The position numbers were made by a program, and so were the translations under genes. The notes under the pieces are model-generated. The model searched no databases and was not told the origin of the DNA. It was given only the letters and a program-made list of their open reading frames with translations. Shown piece by piece: positions 491 to 10,256 of a DNA stretch of 38,407 bases; within the stretch, counting starts at the first letter, position 1; every line of letters begins with the position of its first letter. Origin of the DNA: Nitrospirota bacterium (GTDB lineage Bacteria > Nitrospirota > Nitrospiria > Nitrospirales > UBA8639); contig JAQBUF010000030.1 in NCBI GenBank assembly GCA_027623995.1, positions 1 through 38,407 on the forward strand. The letters are read 5' to 3'.

Positions 491-508
491 TTGCAAGACC
501 TGACCCCA
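491..508 (+). repeat. REP-type terminal repeat, copy 1
   Basis: TTGCAAGACCTGACCCCA lies 27 bp beyond the stop of the lipoprotein gene at 535-1044. The same 18 bp ends the RAYT element at 3436-4363, and nine copies in either orientation lie between 491 and 5995. This is the outermost copy and has no partner nearby, so it is either a solo REP or the scar of a deleted element. Confidence 0.8.
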
Positions 509-534
509 TACATTTTAGAAGGTGGCGGTTTCTT

Positions 535-1044
535 TTAAAACACAAAAGGTGTTTCAAAAGAAATCTTATTAATCATATTTACATCGTCAACCAAGTTGTA
601 GACGAAGGTCATACTTTGACTTGGTGTATTGAAGTAAAAGGAATATTCAACTACAAAAGATTGGGATTCCCCAGGATTTACTGTAATGCTTTCAATAGGC
701 TTACTAAGAGCAAAACTGGGAATACTTTTATGTGGGCGTAGTCGAAATGAAGCCTCGGGGACTGGTTGACCATCTACCTTTATCCACAAGTTTGATTGAT
801 CAAATCTGATTGGATCGCTTCTTACATTCATAATTCTTATTGAAAACTTTCCCGAAGTGCTGCCGTAATAACGAGTTTGATTCCCTTTAAGATCAACGGT
901 GATTCCTTGTTTTGAGATCCTTAGATTATATCCCTCGTCAGGCACCCCAAGATTGCTGAAATCCGGTCGAAGCTGAAAAGTAGCCGGGTCACACGCCACG
1001 ATTAAGGCGGTAATGAATAGACAATAAAAGCCTTTTTTTCTCAT
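535..1044 (-). CDS. Lipoprotein, candidate immunity partner of the adjacent RHS toxin
   Basis: The 169-residue product starts with MRKKG, a hydrophobic stretch and a lipobox-like ALIVAC (Cys18), so it is probably a lipoprotein. The mature part is beta-rich (GKFSIRIMNV, ESQSFVVEYSFYF), like a small Ig-type or immunity domain. It begins 24 bp after the stop of the RHS gene on the same strand, the usual place for a cognate immunity gene. A lipoprotein immunity factor would act in the periplasm, which would suit a metallopeptidase-like toxin acting there. The lipoprotein call rests on sequence. The immunity role is inferred from position only. Confidence 0.55.
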   Translation of the reverse strand: MRKKGFYCLFITALIVACDPATFQLRPDFSNLGVPDEGYNLRISKQGITVDLKGNQTRYYGSTSGKFSIRIMNVRSDPIRFDQSNLWIKVDGQPVPEASFRLRPHKSIPSFALSKPIESITVNPGESQSFVVEYSFYFNTPSQSMTFVYNLVDDVNMINKISFETPFVF

Positions 1045-1068
1045 TGTTCACCAGACAAACATATTTTA

Positions 1069-3411
1069 TTACTTTTCAAATAATCCTGAATTCCTAATAG
1101 TCGTTAGGTCACTACCGGTTGGAGCATCCCCTAAACCGTAGGTTTCTAGAGGACTCAGGTCATGAGCGAGGGTTGAAAAATCTGAATATCGATCTGGAAG
1201 TCCCCAATTATAAATTGTCACAGCTAGAGCGCCAAAAGTACCAACAGCTAAAGATGCAGCATGGCCGGGGATATAGGCCGGACCTAATAATTTTCCCTGT
1301 GGACTTACATGGCCACCCTCATGACCAAAAAATAGTATTTTCTGCATTGGCGACATATTTTTTGTAGAAGGTCCAAAAATTACATTTCCAAAAGTGATTC
1401 CTCCCTCTGGATTGCCATCATAAATGAATGTCCCTCCATCATAAAATGACCAATCAGGTCCTTTGAGACAACCACATGATATAGATTGTCCGGTAAATCC
1501 GACTGCATGACCCACTGCATTATTAAATTGCCGACCACCAGCATATGCAATAATTCCCCCTAGGATACCCTCTCCAATATCTTGGCCTTGAATTGCCGCT
1601 GATGCTGCACCAATCGCTGTCCCTCGCAAGGTATCGTTGAACGCCTGGTTCGCATAATTTACGAACCAGTTTTGGGTGCTATCGCCAAATGGCTGAAATT
1701 TTGATGAATCAACATATGCGGCTAACCCACCCAATGCGCCTCCAAATAATGCACCCTTTAAGGGGTCCCCTCTTGTTGCAGCCGCTGAGGCTGCCCCAGC
1801 AATTGCACCTTGAACAATTCCCGGGCCACCAACATAAAATACTGCCCCACCAATAGCGCCGGAGATAGCTGCATTTCCTAAATCGCCACCTGTAACAGCT
1901 GCTATCGCCACATTTGTGGCAGCACCAATTGCCGCGCCGATTATGGCCTTTACAGCAATTGCTGCTACAAAAGAAAAGAACCGACCTGAGGGATCAGTAT
2001 AAATAATTGGGTTATTAACAACATAGGTATATCGATTCAGCGTTTGTGGAGTTTGTGGGTCTGGGATGACTGTATCCGGCGAAATAAATCTTCCGAGCAC
2101 CGGATCATAGTAGCGCGCTTCATAGAAATAGAGGCTCGTGGTGGTATCGCGTTCTTTGCCCGTGAATTTGTACGCCACATCCGAGGTGCCGGTGTGGGTG
2201 TGGGTGTCGCCATATGGGAGATACGCATTGTGTTCTTCGGCCACGCCGGTGGCGTCGGTGAGGACGCTGGTGGAGCCGAGGTGGTCGGCGTGGAAGTAGC
2301 TGGTGGAGCCACTGCCCACTTGTTTCATGGCGATGCGTTGATCGCCGGCGAAGATGAATTTGACGCACGACAGTGGAGGTGTGGTGCCTTCGCAGACGTA
2401 GAGTTTGCCGATGTACGTTGTCGTGGTCGTCCCATCACTCTTCTTCACCCGTCCTCCATCACCGTCGTAGACGAAGGTGGTAGTCACGCCACCTTTGATG
2501 ACGCTATCCGGTCGGTTCTCGAAGTCGTAGGTGATGATCCGGCCGGCACCGATATTCATATTCCCATTGGCATCGTAGGTGTAGGTGTTCGTGCCATCGG
2601 AACTCACGGCATGCGGCCGTACGCTGGAGCTGCCACTGGCGGGATACGAATACGTCCCCACATTGGACTTGGTCAGCATGTTCCCGATTTCGTTGTAGCT
2701 GTAGGTCACGGTGCCATAGCCGCCCGTGGCACTGGTGAGTCGGTCGAGGTCGTCGTAGTTGAACGTTTTGGTGCCGTGCACGGCATCGGTGAGTGAGGTA
2801 ACGTTCCCGCCATCGTCAAACGTGTAGCCCAAGTCTTGTAGCACGGTGGTGCCTTTTTCGGTCTTCAAGGTTTTGAGGCGGAAGTTTTGGGCGTCGTAGG
2901 TGTAATCCGTCGTCACGCCATTGCCGAGCGTGAGTTGGCTGGGTTGGCCTAGGGCATTGAACCCACTATAGCTTGCGTATGTGGTACTGCCTTCTTGCAC
3001 ACTTTGCAGCTGCGGTCCGTTGTAGGTTTGGGTAACGGTGCTGCTGTTGGGATAGGTGAGGCTGGTGACTCGTCCTAACCCATCATAGGCGCTTTGTGTG
3101 GTGTAGGTGGTGCTATCCACGACCTTGTCGGTCTTGGTCACTCGTCCGGTGATGTCGTAGTAGAAGGTCGTGGTGCCGCTTGCATCGTCTACTTCTTGGA
3201 GGCGGCCTTTGCGGTTGTTCGTGGTCCCATCATACGTATAGACCACATCGCCCGAACCTAATGTTTTCTGCGTGCCGTAATCTTTTTGCACTCTTCGATT
3301 GAGCGCATCGTATTGAAAATGGATCTGTTGGAGTTTGGCATCTGTCTGCAGGGTGAGGTTGCCGTTGGCATCGTAGACATAGCTCCAATCTCCCATGTCC
3401 GGATCATGCAT
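1069..3411 (-). CDS. RHS/YD-repeat polymorphic toxin, 5'-truncated, with HEGGH C-terminal domain
   Basis: Residues 1-430 carry many YD repeats (YDANGN, YDALNR, YDGLGR, YDDLDR). They are followed by the RHS core signature RYYDPVLGRFISPD near 430-446 and the DPSG junction near 473. A Gly/Ala-rich pre-toxin stretch runs about 480-640, and a C-terminal domain contains HEGGH at 697-701 followed by GPAYIPGH. HExGH is a zincin-type metal-binding motif, so the tip may be a metallopeptidase. The Met at 3411 is not a natural start: the frame stays open to about 3435 and matches the internal part of the second RHS fragment (LSRKTS before MHDPDMGDW), where the RAYT element's terminal repeat replaces the rest of the gene. 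No signal peptide, PAAR or transport domain remains. Whether the fragment is expressed is unknown. Confidence 0.85.
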   Translation of the reverse strand: MHDPDMGDWSYVYDANGNLTLQTDAKLQQIHFQYDALNRRVQKDYGTQKTLGSGDVVYTYDGTTNNRKGRLQEVDDASGTTTFYYDITGRVTKTDKVVDSTTYTTQSAYDGLGRVTSLTYPNSSTVTQTYNGPQLQSVQEGSTTYASYSGFNALGQPSQLTLGNGVTTDYTYDAQNFRLKTLKTEKGTTVLQDLGYTFDDGGNVTSLTDAVHGTKTFNYDDLDRLTSATGGYGTVTYSYNEIGNMLTKSNVGTYSYPASGSSSVRPHAVSSDGTNTYTYDANGNMNIGAGRIITYDFENRPDSVIKGGVTTTFVYDGDGGRVKKSDGTTTTTYIGKLYVCEGTTPPLSCVKFIFAGDQRIAMKQVGSGSTSYFHADHLGSTSVLTDATGVAEEHNAYLPYGDTHTHTGTSDVAYKFTGKERDTTTSLYFYEARYYDPVLGRFISPDTVIPDPQTPQTLNRYTYVVNNPIIYTDPSGRFFSFVAAIAVKAIIGAAIGAATNVAIAAVTGGDLGNAAISGAIGGAVFYVGGPGIVQGAIAGAASAAATRGDPLKGALFGGALGGLAAYVDSSKFQPFGDSTQNWFVNYANQAFNDTLRGTAIGAASAAIQGQDIGEGILGGIIAYAGGRQFNNAVGHAVGFTGQSISCGCLKGPDWSFYDGGTFIYDGNPEGGITFGNVIFGPSTKNMSPMQKILFFGHEGGHVSPQGKLLGPAYIPGHAASLAVGTFGALAVTIYNWGLPDRYSDFSTLAHDLSPLETYGLGDAPTGSDLTTIRNSGLFEK

Positions 3412-3466
3412 GCTGGTTTTTCGTGAGAGCGGTTATGGGGTCAGGTCTTGCAATAACACATTGCCT

Positions 3467-4315
3467 TCAATTCCCGTCTTCCGCTTTCCGTACCGCCCGA
3501 CTGACCGTGCTGTAATGGACGCCAAATTGCTGGGCGATGGCCTTCAGGGTATACCCTCCAGAAGCATAAGCGCGGGCCATGGCCTGTAGAGGATCTCGAC
3601 CGCCTTGCCTCATATACCAAGCCAGGGATTTTGCAGGGGCTCGTCGCTGGGCACGTGGCACCTCGGAAAGATCCTGAGTGGCCTCCAAGTGCCTTTGAGC
3701 CTTTCGAATAAAGGTCTCAGAGCCCAAATATACTTGATGCTGCAACTCTTCCCAAATGGGAGGCTGCTTTCGCCCCTCGGAGACAAACGCGCGATAGGCA
3801 GCCTCCGCCTTGGCGCGAGTTCGGCCAAAATGCCCTAAGACCCAATCCGTCGCCAGCCAAGAAGAGGCGGTGGCTTGGCCTGCAGTCGCCCGGTAACTAC
3901 TCCATGGCCATTCTCTGGCACTCCGAACAAGCCCGGCCCGTACCGGATTGAGCACCACATAGCGACAGAGCTCCAGAAGATAGGATTCTCGCTCAACAAG
4001 GATTCCCTTGAAGCGGCCCTGAAACACATGTCCCGTTCGTCCATGCACGCGATTGAAATGTTGGGTATAGACGCCATTGAGTTGGCGCATCCCTTGAGAC
4101 AAATTCGCATCCGGGGTTTCGATGACAAAATGATAATGATTGGCCATCAAGCAATAGGCATGACATCGCCAATTGAAGCGAGAGCTGACGTGGGCATACA
4201 CCTCCAACAATCGGACTCGATCGGCATCCTCAAGAAAAATATCGGCGCGGGCATTGCCACGAGCCGTGACATGATAGAGAGCCCCAGGATATTCAATGCG
4301 AAGAGGACGTGCCAT
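3467..4315 (-). CDS. REP-associated tyrosine transposase (RAYT, Y1_Tnp family)
   Basis: The 282-residue product has the Y1 transposase fold: PGALYHVTARGN at 10-21, an HUH motif NHYHFVIE with His60 and His62, and CRYVVLNPVRAG at 117-128, where Tyr119 is the likely nucleophile. A C-terminal helix-turn-helix (about 243-279, YTLKAIAQQFGVHYSTVSRA) follows, as in many RAYTs that read REP sequences. Length and motif order are normal and there is no frameshift, so it could be active. The enzyme class cuts and joins single-stranded DNA. Its probable substrates are the repeat ends and 138-bp elements in this locus. A 100-bp copy of the beginning of this gene lies at 5896-5995. Confidence 0.92.
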   Translation of the reverse strand: MARPLRIEYPGALYHVTARGNARADIFLEDADRVRLLEVYAHVSSRFNWRCHAYCLMANHYHFVIETPDANLSQGMRQLNGVYTQHFNRVHGRTGHVFQGRFKGILVERESYLLELCRYVVLNPVRAGLVRSAREWPWSSYRATAGQATASSWLATDWVLGHFGRTRAKAEAAYRAFVSEGRKQPPIWEELQHQVYLGSETFIRKAQRHLEATQDLSEVPRAQRRAPAKSLAWYMRQGGRDPLQAMARAYASGGYTLKAIAQQFGVHYSTVSRAVRKAEDGN

Positions 4316-4345
4316 GGGAGAAGGGTAGACGATTAGAATATGTTA

Positions 4346-4363
4346 TTGCAAGACCTGACCCCA
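4346..4363 (+). repeat. REP-type terminal repeat, right end of the RAYT element
   Basis: TTGCAAGACCTGACCCCA forms the upstream end of the RAYT element, 31 bp before the transposase start codon. It is in direct orientation with the copy at 4505-4522. The 141 bp between them (4364-4504) show no coding potential and no match to the neighbouring RHS sequence, so they may be leftover flanking DNA. Confidence 0.8.
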
Positions 4364-4491
4364 AATCTGTAAAAGTCGAGGAAAGATATACCAAATTTGA
4401 CAACTTCTAGCGAGCGATCCCTTGACCCATGGGAATTGTGTTCATATTTTAAATCCACTAGTAGTCATAATGAAAACCTGAACTTACATCT

Positions 4492-5253
4492 TTAATGTGT
4501 GGCAGTACAAGACCTGACCCCCAATCTGCCGTTGCCCAGGGTCAGTGTGCTGGGCTGGCCTAAGGCATTGAACCCGCTATAGGCGGCATACGTGGTGCTG
4601 CCTTCTTCGACGGTTTCCAGTTGCGGGCCGTTGTATGTTTGGGTGACCGTGCTGCTGTTGGGATAGGTAATGCTCGTGACCCGGCCTAAGCCATCATACG
4701 CACTTTGCGTGGTGTAGGTGGTGGAATCCACCACTTTATCCGTCTTGGTCACTCTTCCGGTGACGTCGTAATAAAACGTGGTGGTGCCGGAGGTATCGTC
4801 CACCTGTTGGAGCCGGCCTTTACGATAATTGGTGGTCCCATCATAGGTATAGACCACATCGCCATAGCCCAGGCTCTTCTGCGTGTCGTAATCTTTTTGC
4901 ACTCTTCTGTTTAAGGCATCGTATTGGAAATGGATGTCCTGATCCTTGGCATCGGTCTGGAGGGTGAGATTGCCATTGGCATCGTATTGATAGGTCCAGT
5001 CGCCCATGTCCGGATCGTGCATGCTGGTTTTGCGGGAGAGCGTGTCATAGGCCATGGTGGATTGATTGCCGAGATCATCCGTCAAGAGCACCAGATTGCC
5101 CAGGACATCGTAGTCATACGTGGTGGTGGCATAGGGGGTGCCCACGGCCGTGGAACAGGTGGTAAACGTGCCGGTGTATTCTTCGACCTTGGCTACGCGG
5201 CCATAGGCATCGCGCGTGGTGCGTTTTTTATGATCGTTGGCATCGATGGTCAC
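4492..5253 (-). CDS. RHS/YD-repeat core fragment, truncated at both ends
   Basis: The 253-residue ORF consists of YD repeats (YDYDVLGNLV, YDTLSRKTS, YDANGN, YDALNRR). It is about 90% identical at protein level to the first 165 residues of the neighbouring RHS protein, from MHDPDMGDW to TLTLGNG. The 3' end is abrupt: after LGNG the frame reads through the REP copy at 4505-4522 and stops, giving an artificial tail GVRSCTATH. At the 5' end the frame stays open beyond the GTG at 5253 into the MITE at 5306, so no true start is left. This is a dead piece of a second RHS gene or a duplicated module. A product, if made, would have no toxin domain. Confidence 0.75.
   Translation of the reverse strand: MTIDANDHKKRTTRDAYGRVAKVEEYTGTFTTCSTAVGTPYATTTYDYDVLGNLVLLTDDLGNQSTMAYDTLSRKTSMHDPDMGDWTYQYDANGNLTLQTDAKDQDIHFQYDALNRRVQKDYDTQKSLGYGDVVYTYDGTTNYRKGRLQQVDDTSGTTTFYYDVTGRVTKTDKVVDSTTYTTQSAYDGLGRVTSITYPNSSTVTQTYNGPQLETVEEGSTTYAAYSGFNALGQPSTLTLGNGRLGVRSCTATH
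4505..4522 (+). repeat. REP-type terminal repeat truncating an RHS gene
   Basis: A slightly diverged copy (GTACAAGACCTGACCCCC) ends the RHS homology at 4523. The neighbouring RHS sequence continues normally past the same codons, so the repeat marks a real break. It has no inverted partner within the next 140 bp. Confidence 0.7.
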
Positions 5254-5305
5254 GGCGACCCAGTCATCATGACAGCTAAGTCCCCGGGTCCCATCCGGAG
5301 GATTC

Positions 5306-5443
5306 GGGGTCAGGTCTTGCAGTGACGTATTCCCCTTAAGTCAATTCTTGTGGATTTCTTCCCAATCTTATAAGGGAGAGAGTTGAATGTCGAGATTTAG
5401 AAAAGATTGGTAGGTGAGATATGGCATTGCAAGACCTGACCCC
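5306..5443. mobile_element. 138-bp MITE-like element, copy 1
   Basis: The unit runs from GGGGTCAGGTCTTGCA to TGCAAGACCTGACCCC, so it carries the RAYT element's terminal inverted repeat at both ends but no gene. An inner inverted pair (CCAATCTT and AAGATTGG) adds a stem. A second copy at 5754-5891 has the same length and differs at about 7 positions (about 95% identity). Identity continues for 3 bp on the left (TTC) and 6 bp on the right (ACACCC), so the mobile unit may be slightly longer. The RAYT at 3467-4315 is the obvious candidate to mobilise it. Confidence 0.82.
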
Positions 5444-5753
5444 ACACCCCAGGCCTCCCGCTGCACCCACACCAATAGCTAGTCCAATATTCGTATTATA
5501 CCCTGCAGCTCGATACAAAATCGCACTGGTCCCTCCAACAGCAGCACCTGCTGCTGCTCCACCAGCTATAGCCCCAAAGGCACCTCCTCCCACAGCACCA
5601 CTCACATAACTTCCCACTCCAAAGCCAACGGCTCCTGATGCCCCCCCAATTGCTGCCCCGGTTAAGGTGGCCCCAATGTCCCAATCGCTTTGAATGCCAC
5701 TGGACACTGTACCAACAATTGCGCCAATAAGAATTGCGGTAAAAAACCGCTTC
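5444..5753 (-). pseudogene. RHS pre-toxin (Gly/Ala-rich) fragment captured between two MITEs
   Basis: Read on the minus strand, the open frame begins KRFFTAILIGAIVG next to the MITE and continues as a Gly/Ala-rich stretch (GAAIGGASGAVGFGVG, GGGAFGAIAGGAAAGAAVGG), ending GLAIGVGAAGGLG at the other MITE. KRFF aligns with GRFF right after the DPSG junction of the intact RHS protein, and the Gly-rich composition matches its pre-toxin region. The piece lacks the RHS core before it and any toxin after it. It is a stranded segment of an RHS tip, not a working gene. Confidence 0.65.
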
Positions 5754-5891
5754 GGGGTCAGGTCTTGCAGTGACGTATTTCCCTTGAGTCAATTCTTGTG
5801 GATTTCTTCCCAATCTTATAAGCGCGAGAGTTGAATGTCGAGATTTAGAAAAGATTGGTGGGTGAAATGTGGCATTGCAAGACCTGACCCC
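5754..5891. mobile_element. 138-bp MITE-like element, copy 2
   Basis: This is a same-length, about 95% identical partner of the element at 5306-5443 in the same orientation. Together they flank a 310-bp RHS fragment like the arms of a composite transposon. The right end is followed within 5 bp by a truncated RAYT copy. Confidence 0.82.
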
Positions 5892-5895
5892 ACAC

Positions 5896-5995
5896 CCGTG
5901 ACATGATAGAGAGCCCCAGGATATTCAATGCGAAGAGGACGAGCCATGGGAGAAGGGTAGCCGATTAGAATATGTTATTGCAAGACCTGACCCCA
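5896..5995 (-). pseudogene. RAYT transposase stub (first codons plus terminal repeat)
   Basis: These 100 bp match 4264-4363 of the intact RAYT element with about two substitutions. They include the terminal repeat (5973-5995), the leader and roughly the first 17 codons of the transposase gene (MARPLRIEYPGALYHV). The rest is missing and is replaced by the MITE ending at 5891. It shows that a second RAYT copy once sat here and was truncated, probably by the MITE insertion or by recombination between repeats. Confidence 0.85.
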
Positions 5996-6026
5996 AATCC
6001 GGGCCTTTATGTTCAATGTTCATGTT

Positions 6027-6389
6027 TCATGTGAAATCTAAACCTGTTCCACTTGTACGAACTAGATAATCCACATACTCTTCCCAAACTTCATCAACGC
6101 TCGCAACTATTCTAGGGTTAACTTTAATATTTCGTTCTTGATAGTAAACTTCTAAGCCATTCGATACAGTCAATACATATAACCCATCACGATTCCCAGG
6201 CTGACAGGGAACTACATCTTTCAATGAAAAGTTATCTTTTAAAAATTGAAGAATTTCATGTTTTTTGATGGTAAACACTCGTTGATAAGACTCACCATCA
6301 GATAGTTCCGGCGGTGTTAGCCTTTCAACAAGTCGGCAAGCTTGGTGATTCATTAACGCTCTAATTTGCTCTTCATGAGTTGCTAGCAT
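6027..6389 (-). CDS. Candidate immunity protein of the orphan RHS tip
   Basis: The 120-residue soluble protein has no signal peptide or membrane segment. It starts 3 bp after the stop of the toxin-tip ORF at 6393-7136 and ends about 30 bp before the RAYT stub. The C-terminal half is acidic (ASVDEVWEEYVDYL), a common trait of immunity proteins to cytoplasmic nuclease or nucleotide-modifying toxins. I do not recognise the family. The immunity role rests on tight coupling to the RHS tip. Lack of a signal peptide suggests protection in the cytoplasm. Confidence 0.5.
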   Translation of the reverse strand: MLATHEEQIRALMNHQACRLVERLTPPELSDGESYQRVFTIKKHEILQFLKDNFSLKDVVPCQPGNRDGLYVLTVSNGLEVYYQERNIKVNPRIVASVDEVWEEYVDYLVRTSGTGLDFT

Positions 6390-6392
6390 TTT

Positions 6393-7136
6393 TCACCTTA
6401 AGATTTTTATGGTTTCTTTTAATTCACGAAGGTTCCCAAAATCGGATGGATCAATGACTATTTGAAAGGCATTTTTCCCGCCACCTTCAATAAACCCAAC
6501 CTTAGCTCTTGTAGTCCTCGTTACCTCCAAAGAAGTCAATCTATTGGGTCTTGCCCCTGTAATTGCGAGTTGTCTTATCGCTGCTTCCGTTGAAGTGAGT
6601 GTAGATGATGTAACCCCGCGAGTCGTAAATGATCCAATAGGATTGTTAACTCCTTCTTCGAAAACTCTATCAAGACGCGTGCCAGGGTTTAAGGTAATTT
6701 CTTTGAACCTCCCATTCCTAAAGGTATTTTCAAAAGCCTCTCCCCCGACCTTGACGGTTGCCCCAAAATTAGGCAGGAACGGAAAAACCGCATTGGCTCC
6801 GAGACTTACCCCAGCTGCGACTCTTTCGAACGTTGATGAACCTGGAGAAAACAAGACAGCTGCATCCAAAAATTCCCCAACCCCTGGAATTGTACTTGCC
6901 AAAAGTGTCCCACCGAATAAAGCCGCATCCCTTATTCCAAATCCAGAACCTCTCGATTGACTGGAAACAAAAGGTGTATTTGAAATACCCAGACGTTGCG
7001 ACTGTAAGCCCGCAACATTTGGATTCGCAAACGTAGTGGGAGCGTTGAGTGTGGAACTCGGAATCTGTTGCTGTGCTACTGGAATTCCACCTCCACCGGA
7101 TGGAACTGTTGGTGTATCGCTCCCCCAGCCAAACAA
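6393..7136 (-). CDS. Orphan RHS C-terminal tip with unknown toxin domain
   Basis: The 247-residue ORF starts FGWGSDTPTVPSGGGG, a flexible low-complexity linker. A Gly/Ala/Phe-rich hydrophobic stretch follows (about 65-125), then a C-terminal domain (about 150-247) ending FIEGGGKNAFQIVIDP and a basic tail. The frame is open upstream of the Met to about 7230 and reads LDPFSLFGWG, which resembles the DPxGL junction where RHS tips join the core. No RHS core is present, so this looks like a displaced, orphan tip. The final domain is likely the toxin, since it is followed immediately by an immunity candidate. I cannot name its activity. Confidence 0.55.
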   Translation of the reverse strand: MFGWGSDTPTVPSGGGGIPVAQQQIPSSTLNAPTTFANPNVAGLQSQRLGISNTPFVSSQSRGSGFGIRDAALFGGTLLASTIPGVGEFLDAAVLFSPGSSTFERVAAGVSLGANAVFPFLPNFGATVKVGGEAFENTFRNGRFKEITLNPGTRLDRVFEEGVNNPIGSFTTRGVTSSTLTSTEAAIRQLAITGARPNRLTSLEVTRTTRAKVGFIEGGGKNAFQIVIDPSDFGNLRELKETIKILR

Positions 7137-7303
7137 GGAAAAGGGGTCAAGCCTATTTTCTAATGTATTAAAGTTTGTGGGAGAATTTACCTTCCAGGTG
7201 TATTTCTCGTTAACCGAATGCTACCTAAATTGCTAGTTAAAATGAAAGAGGAAACTGAATTCCGAATGGGGTTTTTAGAGGTGCCCAAATGCAATTCGAT
7301 GGG

Positions 7304-10190: not shown

Positions 10191-10256
10191 GGGGTCGGGT
10201 CTTTCATACTTTAAAGTTCTTCTAGTCTCAGGCAAAGGGGAGCAAGGTTCGACCCC
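10191..10256. repeat. 66-bp inverted-repeat element with GACCCC-type ends
   Basis: The segment begins GGGGTCGGGTCTT and ends AAGGTTCGACCCC. The ends are imperfect inverted repeats (10 of 13 positions). They share only the outer GGGGTC with the RAYT family further left, so this may be a REP of a different RAYT group. It lies in the rapA upstream region between rapA and the NYN gene, where it could also fold in RNA. Confidence 0.4.

What the first reader, a model, noticed from the sequence alone, without database searches (positions are those of the whole stretch)
5303..5897. Composite-like unit: two 138-bp MITEs in direct orientation bracket an RHS pre-toxin fragment
The two elements share length and about 95% identity, keep RAYT-type ends, and enclose 310 bp of RHS coding sequence. 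That geometry could move the enclosed fragment as a cassette. No gene-free MITE capturing a toxin tip is known to me.
Basis: partly seen in the sequence, partly recalled or inferred. Interest (0 to 1): 0.7.

Follow-up and report, generated by a model that had tools for sequence, protein, structure and literature searches.

The report
Transposon ends stitching an Rhs toxin array
Two near-identical 138-bp mobile repeats flank a dead piece of an Rhs toxin gene; they do not form a jumping cassette, but they are two of the many ends of one transposon family that sit at almost every seam of this toxin array, as the same family does in unrelated Vibrio toxin arrays.

Summary
The repeats are real and exactly placed: 5306-5443 and 5754-5891, 140/147 identical with edges, 14-16 bp inverted ends (GGGGTCAGGTCTTGCA). 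They are non-autonomous relatives of the tyrosine-transposase element at 3437-4362. That enzyme has the HTH_23/HTH_28 tail and GGGG[AT][CG]A[CG] ends of TIRYT/TIRtron elements (PMC3733652, PMC6006769), so 'RAYT-type' is only loosely right. The enclosed 310 bp is a toxin-less Rhs linker that starts at the core/tip junction and is cut at both sides. The composite-transposon reading fails: no second copy, other MITEs carry no cargo, and the outer flanks (Rhs core; transposase 5' fragment) do not belong together. Unusual is that nearly every seam of the array carries a TIRtron end, two of them about 30 bp behind putative immunity genes. Vibrio genomes found by MITE DNA alone show the same at CDI and Rhs loci: 5 of 31 end-clusters within 5 kb against 0.16 expected. 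An orphan toxin-immunity module, 98% identical in two Vibrio species, has both borders within about 20 bp of TIRtron ends; a shared toxin-antitoxin unit starts exactly at one. Across 118 loci of many phyla there is no toxin enrichment. Best reading: TIRtron ends act as breakpoints or carriers in toxin arrays; mechanism inferred.

The parts
5306..5443 (+). MITE1, 138 bp, inverted ends GGGGTCAGGTCTTGCA / TGCAAGACCTGACCCC; element probably includes ACACCC to 5449
5754..5891 (+). MITE2, 138 bp, same orientation as MITE1, 95% identical
5444..5753 (-). Rhs piece C: post-core linker (glycine/alanine-rich), starts at the first residue after the DPSG core-end motif, no toxin domain, cut by a MITE at both sides
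3437..4362 (-). complete TIRYT element (TIRtron) with the same ends; gene 3467-4315 (Y1_Tnp, HYH motif, C-terminal HTH_23/HTH_28)
5892..5997 (-). 5' fragment of a second TIRYT copy, cut by MITE2; 5898-5999 aligns with 2 mismatches to the 5' end region of the complete element near 4258-4367
4363..4521 (-). solo left end (4508-4521) with about 145 bp of a truncated element, cut by the TIRYT element
494..507 (-). solo TIR end, 27 bp behind ORF 535-1044
1069..3436 (-). Rhs piece A: core and tip, 5' part lost at the TIRYT end
535..1044 (-). putative immunity gene of tip A (by position only)
4522..5305 (-). Rhs piece B: internal core fragment, 90% identical to A over 171 aa, cut by a TIR end at both sides
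6393..7205 (-). Rhs piece D: core end (LDPFSLFGW) plus C-terminal tip, no Pfam match
6027..6389 (-). putative immunity gene of tip D (by position only); TIR end 5981-5994 lies 32 bp behind it

Best explanation
The region 494-7205 is a decayed Rhs toxin-tip array on the minus strand whose seams are made of TIRtron (TIRYT) ends. The two MITEs are internal-deletion relatives of the TIRtron family; the full copy at 3437-4362 could supply transposase. Shown: nine exact TIR ends lie in 5.5 kb; the edges of pieces A (5' side), B and C fall on TIR ends; neither MITE has flanks that are neighbours in intact Rhs relatives; piece C begins exactly at the core/tip junction. Inferred: these ends acted as breakpoints, either by aberrant single-strand cleavage and joining by the HUH transposase or by homologous recombination between MITE copies. 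The result was displaced tips and immunity genes parked behind TIR ends, most of them probably inert here. The enclosed 310 bp is debris, not cargo.
For: Anatomy. Two TIR ends lie 27 and 32 bp behind the putative immunity genes 535-1044 and 6027-6389. Same layout in Vibrio genomes: V. amylolyticus MITE | AHH toxin + Imm11 | TIRYT, and MITE | TNT toxin + neighbour gene | MITE | next module | MITE; G104 CDI array with Colicin-DNase/WHH toxin + SUKH immunity, then TNT module, then further modules, TIR ends between all; G158, G197, G149 with ends 1-26 bp behind the gene that follows the toxin. Co-location in 16 Vibrio genomes chosen by MITE DNA alone: 5 of 31 end-clusters within 5 kb of an Rhs or CDI scaffold against 0.16 expected, P 4e-7; 7 within 12 kb against 0.33, P 2e-8. 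A 1279-bp TNT module 98.3% identical between V. amylolyticus and G104 starts 11 bp behind a MITE right end and departs within about 20 bp of a TIR left end. An 899-bp unit, 94% identical between G065 and G066 in different surroundings, starts exactly at a TIR left end and carries an RelB/ParE pair ahead of a TIRYT gene; a related pair sits on Vibrio plasmids without TIR ends.
Against: In 118 loci of many phyla the neighbours of such MITEs are ordinary genes, with no toxin enrichment, so the link is not a general property of TIRtrons. The G208 Rhs array has several displaced modules and only one TIR end, so TIRtrons are not needed for tip displacement. No excision, insertion or transposase activity was observed. 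MITE orientation relative to the toxin differs: co-directional in most Vibrio arrays, apparently opposite here. Immunity assignments in the window rest on position. The window is one contig of a 110-contig assembly and may hold assembly errors at repeats. The co-location test assumes uniform placement and has no control with other mobile elements.
Confidence: 0.6

Rival explanations
1. Safe-haven accumulation: displaced Rhs/CDI tips are dispensable DNA, so any mobile element piles up there. The TIRtron inserted once, its MITEs hopped locally, deletions followed, and the association has no mechanistic meaning.
For: Orphan cdiA-CT regions are known to be disrupted by IS elements (PMC3150448). 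The TIRYT and both MITEs lie within 2.5 kb of each other, and only one other MITE exists in the genome. Toxin enrichment is absent in most phyla.
Against: Simple insertions would leave contiguous flanks; here the flanks of each MITE are not neighbours in intact relatives. Module identity borders coincide with TIR ends in Vibrio. Ends sit just behind the immunity position again and again.
Confidence: 0.27
2. Composite cassette: left end of MITE1 and right end of MITE2 mobilise the enclosed fragment as one unit.
For: Same orientation, intact ends; a TIR-bounded unit with cargo exists in Vibrio.
Against: Single copy, no toxin in the fragment, mismatched outer flanks, solitary MITEs elsewhere in the genus.
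Confidence: 0.04
3. MITEs serve as portable homology arms: the Rhs/CDI scaffold gives homology on the 5' side and a MITE behind the immunity gene gives it on the 3' side, so modules are swapped by ordinary homologous recombination without transposase. (A sub-case of the best explanation.)
For: Same-orientation MITEs up to 98% identical lead different modules in two Vibrio species; direct orientation within arrays.
Against: MITE parts behind the shared TNT module are about 90% identical while the module is 98%, so recombination inside the MITE is not shown; MITEs of about 138 bp are short for efficient homologous recombination.
Confidence: 0.15

Closest known systems
TIRtrons / TIRYT elements (Di Nocera 2013, PMC3733652; TnpA Y1 subclass 2.1, PMC6006769)
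   Same: Y1 HUH transposase with HTH_23/HTH_28 C-terminus, terminal inverted repeats fitting GGGG[AT][CG]A[CG], dimers of TIRs dispersed in the genome
   Different: The passages read do not describe MITEs bounding Rhs/CDI tips or toxin-antitoxin cargo
Orphan rhs-CT/rhsI and cdiA-CT/cdiI modules (PMC3150448)
   Same: Displaced toxin tips with immunity genes downstream of a full-length scaffold gene, tips demarcated at DPxG
   Different: There, rearrangement is ascribed to recombination between scaffold and orphan regions, perhaps after tandem duplication; no TIRtron ends at seams are described
REPINs mobilised by RAYT (PMC3116915)
   Same: Short non-autonomous inverted pairs depending on a Y1 transposase in trans
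   Different: REPINs carry GTAG-tagged REP hairpins in high copy number; here TIRs without that tag and three copies
IS200/IS605 insertion sequences (IS608, ISDra2)
   Same: Y1 HUH catalytic family; conserved short flank beside the left end (ATT in 4 of 5 left ends, CTT in the fifth) resembles a left target
   Different: Known members lack terminal inverted repeats (stated in PMC2817692)

Membership tests
TIRYT/TIRtron | Y1 transposase domain with HUH motif and tyrosine | tested here: met
   PF01797 E 3e-11; HYH and RYVVLNPVRA in the sequence
TIRYT/TIRtron | C-terminal helix-turn-helix HTH_23/HTH_28 | tested here: met
   PF13384 2e-6 and PF13518 7e-6 at residues 245-279
TIRYT/TIRtron | terminal inverted repeats fitting GGGG[AT][CG]A[CG] | tested here: met
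   GGGGTCAG at both ends, 3437 and 4362; consensus
TIRYT/TIRtron | transposition activity of the enzyme | not testable with these tools
   needs biochemistry
RAYT/REP | REP palindromes tagged GTAG | tested here: not met
   ends begin GGGG; the fold pairs the two ends with each other rather than a REP hairpin at each end
Composite transposon | the bracketed unit found elsewhere, or outer flanks that belong together | tested here: not met
   single copy of the enclosed DNA; outer flanks come from two different genes.
Rhs orphan tip array | Rhs repeats, DPxG-demarcated tips, several tip pieces in tandem | tested here: met
   PF05593 in A and B, DPSG junction of A and C, pieces A-D
Rhs orphan tip array | functional toxin and cognate immunity | not testable with these tools
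   no Pfam toxin or immunity match in the window; activity needs experiment

The most novel reading that the evidence does not exclude
TIRtrons and their MITEs are a shuttle for toxin modules: in some lineages the HUH transposase, or recombination at its ends, moves toxin-immunity and toxin-antitoxin genes between loci and species, building arrays in which each module is delimited by TIR ends. The window would be a decayed example in a distant lineage.
Probability: 0.3. Interest if true: 0.8.

Novelty: new variant of a known kind. Interest (0 to 1): 0.5.

Why it matters
How Rhs and CDI tips are displaced and exchanged is usually put down to recombination in the scaffold gene. A poorly studied transposon family whose ends recur at module seams, and that bounds a toxin-antitoxin unit shared between species, offers a testable second route and gives TIRtrons a first suggested cargo role.

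Tried and rejected
Composite transposon (flanks and copy number). General toxin association of the MITE family across phyla: 220 neighbouring ORFs from 118 loci give housekeeping families only among the families shown; the few paired MITEs there (L108, L109) enclose no recognised toxin. Rfam: nothing. Shared flank ACACCC as proof of joint duplication: rejected, because Vibrio subfamilies also share 5-7 bp behind the right end (TTTATCT, GAGTGTG), so it is probably part of the element. MITE hairpin as transcription terminator behind immunity genes: one strong hit in a Vibrio MITE, none within the window MITEs. Plasmids and phages: no copy of the window MITE on plasmids; the Vibrio toxin-antitoxin/TIRYT unit gave no match in phages. 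Literature: no paper in the held library joins RAYT with Rhs or polymorphic toxins; only two mention TIRYT.

Full report
Observation. 5303-5449 and 5751-5897 match at 140 of 147 positions. Inside each is a 138-bp inverted-repeat element (5306-5443, 5754-5891) whose ends GGGGTCAGGTCTTGCA / TGCAAGACCTGACCCC pair as a 19-bp stem when folded as single-stranded DNA (z -5.8). The genome has three such MITEs (the third, 78% identical, on another contig) and a congener has one; those two look solitary.

What the element is. A complete copy with a gene lies next door: 3437-4362, gene 3467-4315. The enzyme has the Y1 transposase domain, a HYH motif and a C-terminal HTH_23/HTH_28. That tail plus ends fitting GGGG[AT][CG]A[CG] is the published description of TIRYT transposases and their TIRtrons, TnpA Y1 subclass 2.1 (PMC3733652, PMC6006769). 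REP/RAYT proper has GTAG-tagged hairpins, not seen here.

What is enclosed. The 310 bp between the MITEs is an Rhs linker, open for 103 aa on the minus strand. Its residue 2 aligns with the first residue after DPSG in the neighbouring Rhs protein A, and it matches the post-core linker of intact Rhs proteins in two relatives at 57-65%. DPxG is the sharp core/tip border of Rhs proteins (PMC3150448). The fragment stops before any toxin domain; its reading frame runs into a stop codon inside MITE1. It occurs once in the genome.

Why not a composite transposon. The left outer flank (before 5303) is mid-core Rhs (piece B). The right outer flank (from 5898) is the first 100 bp of a TIRYT element copy. 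If MITE1-C-MITE2 had landed in that copy, the rest of the gene should lie to the left. It does not. Each MITE likewise has flanks that are not neighbours in intact Rhs genes. I compared flanks one by one and joined none.

Array anatomy, read on the minus strand: tip D (6393-7205), putative immunity (6027-6389), TIR end 32 bp behind it, truncated TIRYT copy, MITE2, linker C, MITE1, core piece B, solo TIR end with truncated element, complete TIRYT, core and tip A (1069-3436), putative immunity (535-1044), TIR end 27 bp behind it. This is the only Rhs locus found in the genome. Outer flanks of the left-type ends share ATT in 4 of 5 cases and CTT in the fifth, as expected if a left target is recognised; that is inference.

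Is the link with toxins more than local chance? In 118 loci of many phyla it is absent: one Rhs hit by tblastn and ordinary Pfam families among 220 neighbouring ORFs. The one Rhs hit led to Vibrio amylolyticus, where all four exact MITEs lie at toxin loci: AHH nuclease with Imm11, TNT toxin with its neighbour, an Rhs core end. Further Vibrio genomes were then taken by MITE DNA alone. G104 carries a CDI array: MITE, Colicin-DNase/WHH toxin, SUKH immunity, TIR end, MITE, CdiA-type gene with TNT tip and immunity, MITE, another pair, MITE, a small gene, TIR end. G158, G197 and G149 have TIR ends or a whole TIRYT 1-26 bp behind the gene that follows an Rhs or CdiA gene. Leaving out the genomes that led to the idea, 31 end-clusters in 16 genomes give 5 within 5 kb of an Rhs or CDI scaffold against 0.16 expected (P 4e-7) and 7 within 12 kb against 0.33 (P 2e-8).

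Evidence on movement. A 1279-bp TNT module is 98.3% identical between V. amylolyticus and G104. In G104 it is the end of a longer CdiA-type gene; in V. amylolyticus it starts 11 bp behind a MITE right end, and identity departs within about 20 bp of a TIR left end behind the immunity position in both. Separately, an 899-bp unit shared by V. amylolyticus and Vibrio sp. G066 (94%), in different surroundings, begins exactly at a TIR left end and holds an RelB-like/ParE pair (PF05016, 3e-13) followed by a second left end and a TIRYT gene. A related toxin-antitoxin pair, without TIR ends in the match, is on Vibrio plasmids at about 80%. So a TIRtron can carry a toxin module at least at its left border. 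No right TIR was found behind the TIRYT gene there.

Reading. The window's MITEs are parts of a TIRtron-riddled Rhs array whose breaks lie at TIR ends. How the breaks arose is open: aberrant HUH cleavage, recombination between MITEs, or insertions followed by deletions in dispensable DNA. Counter-evidence is kept in view: a G208 Rhs array with several displaced modules has a single TIR end, and MITE orientation relative to the toxin is not uniform.

Noticed in passing
G000 contigs C45:6730, C55:139, C25, C67 (L003, L007, L018, L019): A second TIRYT subfamily (41% identical enzyme on C55) with ends GGGGTCAGGTCTTGACTTCATACCTTAAAA; two of its ends sit at contig ends, a hint that it breaks the assembly.
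   Followed up: partly
L210 1-15000 (Vibrio G197): Around a large Rhs-repeat gene, a series of small immunity-like genes each separated by MITEs that still encode residues 1-41 and 256-279 of the TIRYT, i.e. clear internal-deletion derivatives.
   Followed up: partly
L292 1129-3321 (Vibrio G104 C1:1175600-1177800): One complete TIRYT with three truncated copies (5' parts) in tandem, each about 350-400 bp, joined at TIR ends.
   Followed up: no
L172 11945-11974 and like positions in other Vibrio MITEs: A 13-pair stem followed by a T run in the left half of the MITE resembles an intrinsic terminator and lies behind immunity genes.
   Followed up: partly
L206 2934-4454 (Vibrio G104 C2:1854000-1855450): A Fic-domain protein gene lies between TIRtron ends.
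   Followed up: no
L289 1058-13675 (Vibrio G208): Rhs gene followed by several displaced core-end/tip modules, 87-95% identical in the shared core piece, with only one TIR end.
   Followed up: partly
window 10191-10204: GGGGTCGGGTCTTT, two mismatches to the TIR, upstream of the RapA gene; possibly a decayed end.
   Followed up: no
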